Below, piece by piece: positions 59,029 to 60,270 of a stretch of DNA of 64,000 nucleotides (its first letter is position 1; every line of letters begins with the position of its first letter). The DNA is from Providencia rettgeri (GTDB lineage: Bacteria; Pseudomonadota; Gammaproteobacteria; Enterobacterales; Enterobacteriaceae). A program made the translations under genes and the position numbers. The stretch covers positions 1,736,001 to 1,800,000 of the forward strand of contig NZ_CP163512.1 in assembly GCF_041075285.1 (NCBI RefSeq), given 5' to 3'. Below the pieces are notes generated by a model. It was not told the DNA's origin, did no database searches, and was given only the letters and a program-made list of their open reading frames with translations.

Positions 59029-59271
59029 ATGACAAATAAGAAATCAGGCAATATCGCTTTAGGCCAATTTATTAAGAAAAAACGCTTAGCAAGCCAAATA
59101 ACATCACAAGAAATGGCGAAAAAAATCGCCATTTCTGAGACTGCTTATCAAAAGTATGAAGATGGCTCATTATCCATATACGTTGACCATCTTGTTATGT
59201 TCTCTAAGATATTTAACATTGATTTAAACTTACTATTTGAAATTTATCTTGGTTCAGAGATAGATAGCTAA
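59029..59271 (+). CDS. XRE-family helix-turn-helix regulator
   Basis: 80 residues with a single HTH (LGQFIKKKRLASQITSQEMAKKIAISETAYQKYEDGSLSI). No effector domain. The size and layout resemble small fimbrial or phage regulators such as the MrpJ group. It lies ~130 bp before the catA leader; a link to catA is not shown. Confidence 0.85.
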   Translation: MTNKKSGNIALGQFIKKKRLASQITSQEMAKKIAISETAYQKYEDGSLSIYVDHLVMFSKIFNIDLNLLFEIYLGSEIDS

Positions 59272-59401
59272 CTTATGTGAATTAAAACTTGGCGTTAGCG
59301 TCAAATGTGCTCTTTTATTGATATAACAAAATTGTTCTCGACAACATTCATAGGGTCATTAATATAGTCTTAACCATCAATGACTACCACGAGGCAATAG
59401 C

Positions 59402-59437
59402 ATGTTGTTTTCAACAGCAGAAAAGCTACCCTTCTAA
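59402..59437 (+). CDS. Candidate catA leader peptide (11 residues)
   Basis: ATG at 59402 with GAGG seven bases upstream; sequence MLFSTAEKLPF, stop TAA at 59435 inside the 5' arm of the stem that hides the catA ribosome site. Ser-Thr-Ala at codons 4-6 suits chloramphenicol-dependent ribosome arrest, which prefers Ala, Ser or Thr in the penultimate residue. Confidence 0.6.
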   Translation: MLFSTAEKLPF

Positions 59438-59470
59438 TAAGTAAGGTTATTATTTTTATTATTAGAAGGG
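59429..59470 (+). promoter_or_regulatory. SD-sequestering stem-loop before catA
   Basis: CCCTTCTAATAA (59429-59440) pairs perfectly with TTATTAGAAGGG (59459-59470); the second arm contains AGAAGGG, the ribosome site of catA. In the folded state catA translation would be low; a ribosome stalled on the leader would free it. Confidence 0.8.
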
Positions 59471-59477
59471 AAAAACA

Positions 59478-60134
59478 ATGAATTACAGCCGTTTTAACGT
59501 TGAAGCATGGCAACGGAAAGAGCACTACCATGTTTATAACACACAAATTAACTGTGGGTTTAGCCTAACAGCAAAAATCGACATAACCTCATTGCTCACT
59601 TTTATAAAACTTCGTGGTTATCGTTTTTACCCTACGATGATTTATTTATTATCATCACTGGTGAATAAGCACGATGAGTTTAAATTATCTAAAAAAGATA
59701 ATGAGCTGATTTTATGGGATAAGGTGAATCCCAGTTTTACGACTTTCCATAATGAAACCGAAACCTTTTCATCTTTATGGTGTGAATATTCTGATAACAT
59801 CCAGATTTTTATGGAAAATTATGAGGAACAGATCAGGTTGTATAAAGGTAATTATGACCTAGCGCCACAACCTGAGCAGGCAGAAAATATTTTTTATATA
59901 TCATCATTACCGTGGGTGTCGTTCGATAGTTTTAATTTAAATATTGCCAATATTGCTAGCAATTTCATGCCTATTTTCACAATGGGTAAATTTTACGCAG
60001 ACGGCGATAACATCTTGCTACCCCTTGCTATTCAGGTACATCATGCCGTTTGTGATGGGTTTCATGTGGGGCGGTTTATCAATGAATTACAAAAGCTGTG
60101 TTATAACCCAATGAATGAATCCGTTTTAGCGTGA
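59478..60134 (+). CDS. catA: Type-A chloramphenicol O-acetyltransferase
   Basis: A 218-residue CAT. The active-site motif HHAVCDGFHVG is at residues ~188-198, with the catalytic His as its second His. N-terminal and middle parts fit the family (FYPTMIYLLSSLVNKHDEF, then FTTFHNETETFSSLWCEY). It acetylates chloramphenicol with acetyl-CoA and so inactivates it. As a chromosomal gene it matches the resistance typical of Providencia. The region upstream carries a leader ORF and an SD-hiding stem, suggesting drug-induced translation. Confidence 0.94.
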   Translation: MNYSRFNVEAWQRKEHYHVYNTQINCGFSLTAKIDITSLLTFIKLRGYRFYPTMIYLLSSLVNKHDEFKLSKKDNELILWDKVNPSFTTFHNETETFSSLWCEYSDNIQIFMENYEEQIRLYKGNYDLAPQPEQAENIFYISSLPWVSFDSFNLNIANIASNFMPIFTMGKFYADGDNILLPLAIQVHHAVCDGFHVGRFINELQKLCYNPMNESVLA

Positions 60135-60211
60135 AGCCACTATGTGGCTAAAGGAAATCAATTTATTGCGGTTTTCATGGTAAATCAATAGCTTATTCCT
60201 GTTACTTAACA

Positions 60212-60243
60212 ACCTAAAGGGAAGCGCTTGCTTCCCTTTAGGT
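60212..60243. other. Strong stem-loop after catA
   Basis: ACCTAAAGGGAAG and CTTCCCTTTAGGT form a perfect 13-bp stem with loop CGCTTG. No T-run follows on either strand; it probably ends or protects the catA message. Confidence 0.6.
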
Positions 60244-60270
60244 CACTCTTCGGCAATCATTTTTCTATCG

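What the first reader, a model, noticed from the sequence alone, without database searches (positions are those of the whole stretch)
59380..59480. Translational attenuator in front of a chromosomal Gram-negative catA
An 11-codon leader (MLFSTAEKLPF) with its own GAGG site ends inside the 5' arm of a perfect 12-bp stem whose 3' arm hides the catA ribosome site. Ser-Thr-Ala at codons 4-6 is the context preferred for chloramphenicol arrest; a ribosome held at codon 7 would cover about seven bases of the 5' arm and free the site. This mirrors cat-86/pC194 in Gram-positives and cmlA, whereas catA in Gram-negatives is generally taken to be constitutive.
Basis: partly seen in the sequence, partly recalled or inferred. 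Interest (0 to 1): 0.78.

Follow-up and report, generated by a model that had tools for sequence, protein, structure and literature searches.

The report
Drug-responsive switch on a resistance gene
A short leader peptide and an RNA hairpin in front of a chromosomal chloramphenicol-resistance gene look like a switch that lets the enzyme be made when the drug stalls ribosomes, and related switches sit in front of related genes in several genera and on plasmids.

Summary
Leader 59402-59437 (MLFSTAEKLPF) has its own GAGG. Its stop lies inside the 5' arm (59429-59440) of a perfect 12-bp stem whose 3' arm (59459-59470) holds the whole catA ribosome site. One of 247 candidate starts in the window and 0 of 4000 shuffles show this layout.
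It is conserved: 45 of 108 CatA loci examined carry it, with 28 distinct leaders in the 44 tabulated. They come from the window's genus (Providencia), three other genera and plasmid catA2 and catA3. The putative arrest site reads Ala/Thr (-1), Glu/Thr (P), Arg/Lys (A; one Asn), like the toeprinted cmlA arrest. Inner arms covary (0 of 5000 permutations). The stem starts 8-10 nt after the P codon in 42 of 44. No examined locus with this stem lacks the leader frame. In folding, a ribosome parked there opens the catA site (median 0.001 to 0.62); so does one at the stop codon.
Best reading: a chloramphenicol-induced translational attenuator, probably ancestral in one catA clade and carried along on catA2. 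New member of a known kind; induction untested.

The parts
59338..59365 (+). promoter-like pair TCGACA-16-TAATAT upstream of the leader; the word CTCGACAA stands at a similar place in 6 of 9 Providencia upstream regions listed
   Evidence: 3 promoter-like sites found, 4.1 expected by chance, so weak alone; listing
59391..59394 (+). GAGG ribosome site of the leader
   Evidence: 7 nt before the leader ATG
59402..59437 (+). leader ORF MLFSTAEKLPF + TAA
   Evidence: conserved in relatives
59417..59425 (+). putative arrest core: Ala6 (-1), Glu7 (P site), Lys8 (A site)
   Evidence: residue table over 28 distinct leaders; rule from PMC8987054 and PMC11190716; arrest inferred
59429..59440 (+). 5' arm of the sequestering stem
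59459..59470 (+). 3' arm of the stem, contains the catA ribosome site
59464..59470 (+). catA ribosome site AGAAGGG, hidden in the stem
   Evidence: accessibility
59478..60134 (+). catA, type A chloramphenicol acetyltransferase, 218 aa
   Evidence: NF000491 287.5 bits, cut-off 270; nearest solved structures type III CAT

Best explanation
A translational attenuator. Without drug, the leader is translated and released at its stop, the stem re-forms and covers the catA ribosome site, so little enzyme is made. At low chloramphenicol, drug-bound ribosomes stall with leader codon 7 (Glu) in the P site and Ala6 in the penultimate position of the nascent chain. The parked ribosome covers the outer 7 pairs of the 5' arm, the remaining five A-U pairs hold poorly, and catA is translated. 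Shown: the parts, their conservation, covariation, spacing and modelled opening. Inferred: transcription of the whole unit from upstream, fast release at the stop without drug, stalling by the drug, and induction.
For: Layout unique in the window and absent from shuffles. Leader plus stem in 44 tabulated loci (35 distinct regions, 28 peptides) plus L107, where the loop has grown to 138 nt yet both arms (12 bp) and the leader remain. Leader read in frame: synonymous:nonsynonymous codon differences 37:83 in frame against 14:112 and 10:121 in the other two frames for 8 Providencia leaders, 68:88 against 17:132 and 12:139 for 13 leaders of genus g83, 9:17 against 4:23 and 4:26 for 5 of g138. Arrest core over 28 peptides: -1 Thr 19, Ala 9; P Glu 17, Thr 11; A Arg 21, Lys 6, Asn 1. 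cmlA leader stalls with Asp8 in P, Lys9 in A, motif KNAD (PMC11190716, passages); chloramphenicol favours Ala, then Ser/Thr, at -1 (PMC8987054, passages). P codon to stem 8-10 nt in 42 of 44, while the frame in which the arm is read changes between groups (PF-stop, ALLR-stop, PSDY-stop). The cat leaders of two Gram-positive plasmids found with the same script (MKKSEDYSS, L057, L058) show the same geometry: Ser4-Glu5, stem 8 nt after the Glu codon (positions). Covariation of the inner stem 103 pairs against 49.9 (sd 10.6) in permutations, 0 of 5000. Ribosome-site accessibility for the window 0.00 free, 0.42 when stalled at codon 7, 0.00 at codons 1-5. In 24 genomes of the genus the stem pattern occurs at one place in each of 9 genomes, each time just before catA (places).
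Against: No expression or stalling data for any member. Codons 6 to 10 would all open the window's site about equally in folding (0.37-0.50), so folding does not single out codon 7. A ribosome sitting at the leader's stop also opens the site in the model (window 0.27; others 0.19 to 0.99), so the off state needs quick release there, which is assumed. Modelled opening for the window is only partial (0.42), and only 0.02 and 0.13 for L013 and L007. Leaders of L010, L011, L012 and L014 have no clear ribosome site, L010 has a weaker stem (9 bp) and its catA site is already partly open (0.26). One leader (L026) has Asn, not Arg/Lys, in the A site. Shared ancestry inflates the permutation test. The arrest-core pattern was set after seeing the leaders. 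RNAalifold on the plain alignment found only one covarying pair of seven.
Confidence: 0.85

Rival explanations
1. The stem is a constitutive damper of catA translation (or a structure for mRNA stability) and the leader is translated but does not sense the drug.
For: Site accessibility is near zero without a ribosome in most members; no induction data exist.
Against: The leader's residues, not only its nucleotides, are conserved in frame, the conserved residues sit at -1/P/A for a stall that opens the stem, and the P codon to stem distance is nearly fixed. A mere damper does not need this.
Confidence: 0.08
2. The leader is a stall sensor, but for another signal: other peptidyl-transferase drugs, or slow decoding at the Arg/Lys codons in starvation.
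For: Linezolid shares the Ala/Ser/Thr penultimate preference (PMC8987054, passages). Arg or Lys follows the core in 27 of 28 leaders.
Against: The gene under control is a chloramphenicol acetyltransferase. The Arg/Lys codons are one or a few scattered ones, not a run as in amino-acid attenuators (that comparison is recalled). cmlA has Lys in the A site and answers to chloramphenicol.
Confidence: 0.05
3. The hairpin is a transcription terminator or transcriptional attenuator.
For: Strong hairpin between a possible promoter and the gene.
Against: 0 terminator-like sites in 59230-60260 on either strand (that scan allows loops of 3-8 only, but no T run follows the stem either). The 3' arm holds the ribosome site 4-9 nt before the start codon in the 44 members.
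Confidence: 0.02

Closest known systems
cat attenuators of Gram-positive bacteria (cat-86; pC194/pC221-type cat)
   Same: Short leader with its own ribosome site, stop inside the 5' arm, stem hiding the cat ribosome site, small/hydroxyl residue then acidic residue at the putative stall, 8 nt to the stem; seen directly in L057 and L058 (MKKSEDYSS).
   Different: Different leader sequence and stem, host and CatA branch. cat-86 details are recalled. The Gram-positive pC221 gene has been reported inducible by this mechanism (Lovett 1990, seen only as cited in PMC11489765).
cmlA leader of the Tn1696 integron
   Same: Gram-negative, chloramphenicol; leader motif KNAD with Asp in P and Lys in A site (PMC11190716, passages), here mostly (K/Q)(A/T)(E/T)(R/K).
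   Different: cmlA encodes an exporter and its region is described with two alternate stem-loops (PMC8876359, passages); here one stem suffices in the model.
ermC macrolide attenuator
   Same: Drug-stalled leader unmasks the resistance gene's ribosome site (PMC5418344, passages).
   Different: Other drug and other arrest peptide; an alternative RNA structure forms there.

Membership tests
chloramphenicol-induced translational attenuators (cat-86/pC194/cmlA kind) | downstream gene gives chloramphenicol resistance | tested here: met
   By family only: NF000491 type A CAT 287.5 bits against cut-off 270; activity not measured
chloramphenicol-induced translational attenuators (cat-86/pC194/cmlA kind) | short leader ORF with its own ribosome site, stop at or in the stem | tested here: met
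   conserved in frame
chloramphenicol-induced translational attenuators (cat-86/pC194/cmlA kind) | stem sequesters the resistance gene's ribosome site | tested here: met
   (computed, not probed)
chloramphenicol-induced translational attenuators (cat-86/pC194/cmlA kind) | leader offers a chloramphenicol arrest context at a place where the ribosome opens the stem | tested here: met
   Sequence and folding only: Ala6-Glu7|Lys8, 7 bases of the arm covered; rule from PMC8987054 and PMC11190716 (passages)
chloramphenicol-induced translational attenuators (cat-86/pC194/cmlA kind) | drug-dependent ribosome stall on the leader | not testable with these tools
   needs toeprinting
chloramphenicol-induced translational attenuators (cat-86/pC194/cmlA kind) | induction of the gene by sub-inhibitory drug | not testable with these tools
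   needs reporter assay
transcriptional attenuator / terminator | hairpin followed by a T run | tested here: not met
   0 sites; no T run after the stem
any curated Rfam family | score above gathering threshold | tested here: not met
   two matches far below their gathering scores

The most novel reading that the evidence does not exclude
A whole clade of Gram-negative catA genes (Providencia, three further genera, and the plasmid genes catA2 and catA3 that group with it) is chloramphenicol-inducible by one inherited leader-stem switch. Plasmid catA2 still carries it in most copies seen (46 of 59 E. coli genomes with the stretch), and some mobile copies of catA2 and catA3 lack leader and 5' arm, so copies of the same gene differ in regulation.
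Probability: 0.72. Interest if true: 0.7.

Novelty: new member of a known kind. Interest (0 to 1): 0.62.

Why it matters
It would make inducible, leader-controlled expression the likely ancestral state of a group of Gram-negative chloramphenicol acetyltransferases, including catA2; a 301-base stretch of catA2 with its leader had a match in 637 plasmid records. It supplies 28 natural variants of a candidate chloramphenicol arrest peptide, in which the (A/T)(E/T)(R/K) core is held while neighbours vary; this is a ready-made set for working out what arrest needs beyond a penultimate alanine. It also bears on measurements: expression assayed without drug, or from the coding sequence alone, would miss the switch. 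Ten literature searches showed no title or abstract describing it for Gram-negative catA, catA2 or catA3. Only the listings were seen (1 to 20 papers each, often a small part of the papers that matched), and older subscription papers are not in that library and could hold one.

Tried and rejected
Terminator reading: no terminator-like site. Rfam: nothing. RNAalifold on the plain MAFFT alignment gave only 7 pairs with one covarying, because the outer pairs are fixed by the ribosome site and the inner arm has shifts and bulges; a bulge-tolerant pairing test on the arms was used instead. First listing of relatives left minus-strand loci unturned; redone. In one search the leaders of L008, L010-L012, L014 and L050 were not listed because of the ribosome-site filter; found on reading. 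Start codons were misassigned by script for L003, L018, L019, L059 and L088; L018 was set by hand, the others left. L003, L018 and L070 were dropped from the tree as too short; also left out were L006 (same genome as L001), L019 (catA remnant) and 16 loci (L072-L087) under 36% identity, leaving 87 of 108 rows. Codon-7 specificity from folding: not supported, codons 6-10 are alike. The HTH gene 59029-59271 as catA regulator was considered; no evidence beyond neighbourhood.

Full report
What is there. Reading: the leader ribosome site GAGG is at 59391-59394 and the leader ORF at 59402-59437 (MLFSTAEKLPF, TAA). A perfect 12-bp stem pairs 59429-59440 with 59459-59470 across an 18-nt loop. The catA ribosome site AGAAGGG (59464-59470) lies wholly in the 3' arm and catA starts at 59478. 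The region folds with z -4.14. Of 247 candidate start codons of ORFs of 100 aa or more in the window (several per ORF), one has an SD-covering perfect stem of 8 bp or more, and it is this one, with a leader stop in the 5' arm. Of 4000 dinucleotide shuffles of the upstream 110 bases 2 have such a stem of 9 bp or more, none of 12, none with a leader. catA is a full-length type A CAT (NF000491, 287.5 bits, cut-off 270; closest solved structures are type III CAT) and the only match in its genome.

Host. The window's genome shares its genus with G020. L006 (G020, contig of 548,405 bases) and L001 (Providencia vermicola DSM 17385, contig of the same length, identical leader region) are evidently the same genome, so the host is a Providencia.

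Conservation. CatA relatives (E <= 1e-20) were found in 15 of 24 genomes of the genus, 36 of 392 of the family, 33 of 394 of the order (the last two draw in part on the same genomes, and each count includes the own genome), 16 of 20, 7 of 12 and 4 of 6 in three other genera g83, g138, g93, and in 1636 plasmid records. I examined 108 fetched loci (some are duplicates and 16 are distant CatA-like genes). Of these, 44 carry the leader with the stem in tabulated form and L107 makes 45. The 44 hold 35 distinct regions and 28 distinct leaders, among them MLFSKAERSPF, MVFSKAERAPF, MSQSKAEKPPF, MSPIKAERVALLH, MSPIQTERAALLI, MLPIQTTRFALLR, MLPIETTRLPSDY, MLSIQTERMPF. No locus with this stem lacked the leader frame. 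In the CatA tree (87 rows, quick method) the 43 leader rows fall in one group of 48 (SH-aLRT 84). The 5 exceptions are Myroides L002, L024 and three catA3 copies that begin inside the loop (L053, L055, L061). The neighbouring group of 34 rows, with catA1 and catA4, has none; the Gram-positive L057 and L058, which have their own kind of leader, were labelled 'none' there. The label needs 4 changes on the tree against 28.6 in shuffles (these do not allow for near-copies). The ten Providencia genomes with the orthologue keep the HTH gene and the racemase upstream; ttcA was found downstream in 5 of the ten and not within the 1.5 kb held in the other five. The stem pattern CCTTCTAAT-N6..36-ATTAGAAGG occurs in 9 of 24 genomes of the genus, at one place each, and each place lies directly before catA (against places).

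Selection on the peptide and on the RNA. Codon differences between leaders are more often synonymous in the leader frame than in the other frames (37:83 against 14:112 and 10:121; 68:88 against 17:132 and 12:139; 9:17 against 4:23 and 4:26). Over the 28 leaders the residue at -1 of the putative stall is Thr (19) or Ala (9), in the P site Glu (17) or Thr (11), in the A site Arg (21), Lys (6) or Asn (1) (the core pattern was set after seeing the leaders). Distance from P codon to stem is 8-10 nt in 42 of 44 loci (7 in L015, 12 in L010). The part of the leader that overlaps the stem is read in different frames in different groups, which suggests that the stem is kept as RNA, not as peptide code. 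In the inner stem the native arms pair far better than permuted arms (103 against 49.9, sd 10.6; 0 of 5000; 24 distinct arm pairs; relatedness not removed). RNAalifold on the plain alignment finds 7 pairs; six hardly vary and one varies as A-U 15, U-A 14, G-C 4, U-G 2. In L107 an enlarged loop of 138 nt (16 nt in its relative L108) leaves leader, spacing (9 nt) and a 12-bp stem intact.

Mechanism. Folding with a ribosome footprint (P codon -14 to +15, my assumption): catA site open probability median 0.001 free, 0.001 with a ribosome at the leader start, 0.62 when stalled at the P codon, over 34 distinct regions; window 0.00, 0.00, 0.42. A ribosome at the leader's stop opens it too (window 0.27, range 0.19-0.99), so the off state must rest on quick release there, as is assumed for the known systems. 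Along the window's leader, P-site codons 1-5 give 0.00 and codons 6-10 0.37-0.50, so a stall anywhere from codon 6 to 10 would do. The choice of codon 7 rests on conservation and on the drug's known preference: chloramphenicol arrests best with Ala, less with Ser/Thr, as penultimate residue (PMC8987054, passages), and the cmlA leader stalls with Asp8 in P and Lys9 in A after KNAD (PMC11190716, passages). Positive control: the catA7 genes of an Enterococcus and a Staphylococcus plasmid (L057, L058) give MKKSEDYSS, a 12-bp stem and 8 nt from the Glu5 codon to the stem with the same script.

Mobile relatives. catA2 on the three plasmids read (L054, L060, L063) has the leader MLPIETTRLPSDY and an 11-bp stem, the region being identical to that of L038, a chromosome of genus g93. 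In complete E. coli genomes 59 of 5426 match the catA2 stretch. In 46 of these the match runs through the leader (31 at 99.7-100%, 15 at 97.3-97.7%; the leaders of the latter were not read), and in 13 it begins at query base 70, so leader and 5' arm are missing and the 3' arm stays. In plasmids 637 records match and 591 are covered to 80% or more, which does not by itself prove an intact leader (not sorted further). catA3: of 11 plasmid records 1 (pEIB202, L062) keeps the leader MLSIQTERMPF and 10 begin inside the loop; an IS5-type transposase gene ends about 35 bases before catA in L053 and L055. The same leader stands on a genome of the genus, G019 (L018), before a catA3 whose frame is interrupted. 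Reading: the switch is old in this clade and was carried off with catA2 and catA3, sometimes cut. The direction of transfer, and that cut copies are not drug-dependent, are inference.

Limits and results against. No induction data. Leaders of L010, L011, L012 and L014 lack a clear ribosome site; L010's stem is 9 bp and its catA site is partly open without a ribosome (0.26). L013 and L007 open little in the model (0.02, 0.13). The promoter-like site 59338-59365 is not above chance. L031 has an SD-covering 10-bp stem of other sequence without a matching leader, so a stem alone is not proof.

Novelty. Ten searches of the held papers listed no report of a leader before Gram-negative catA, catA2 or catA3; I saw listings, and passages of seven papers (in part on other questions). 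The one paper with both catA2 and translational attenuation (PMC11489765, passages) applies attenuation to the staphylococcal pC221 gene and clones only the catA2 coding sequence. The uORF tool paper (PMC10219788, search for four terms) does not mention chloramphenicol. Older subscription papers are not held. I file it as a new member, in fact a new conserved family, of a known kind.

Noticed in passing
window 59029-59271: A small HTH gene lies directly upstream of the leader, same strand, and stays beside catA in all ten Providencia genomes with the orthologue. It may be a partner or just a neighbour.
   Followed up: partly
L019 (G012): A decayed catA remnant with two stops in the matched part, next to the racemase gene and an HTH gene that matches in two pieces in different frames: the catA unit is being lost in some Providencia.
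   Followed up: no
L107 (G797:C1, upstream of catA): A loop of 138 nt (16 nt in its relative) inside the attenuator hairpin, 51% GC, both arms kept; a natural test of loop length.
   Followed up: partly
L018 (G019:C3:1596219-1596719): catA3 in a Providencia genome with the leader intact but the catA frame interrupted near codon 44; could be a real break or a sequencing error (genome 94% complete).
   Followed up: partly
L020 (G008) and L008 (G008): One Providencia genome holds both its own catA and a catA2-like gene on the same contig, each with its own leader.
   Followed up: no
E. coli records H188-H200: Thirteen E. coli catA2 copies (two from strain C21) share the same left junction at query base 70, just after the 5' arm, pointing to one event that then spread.
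   Followed up: partly
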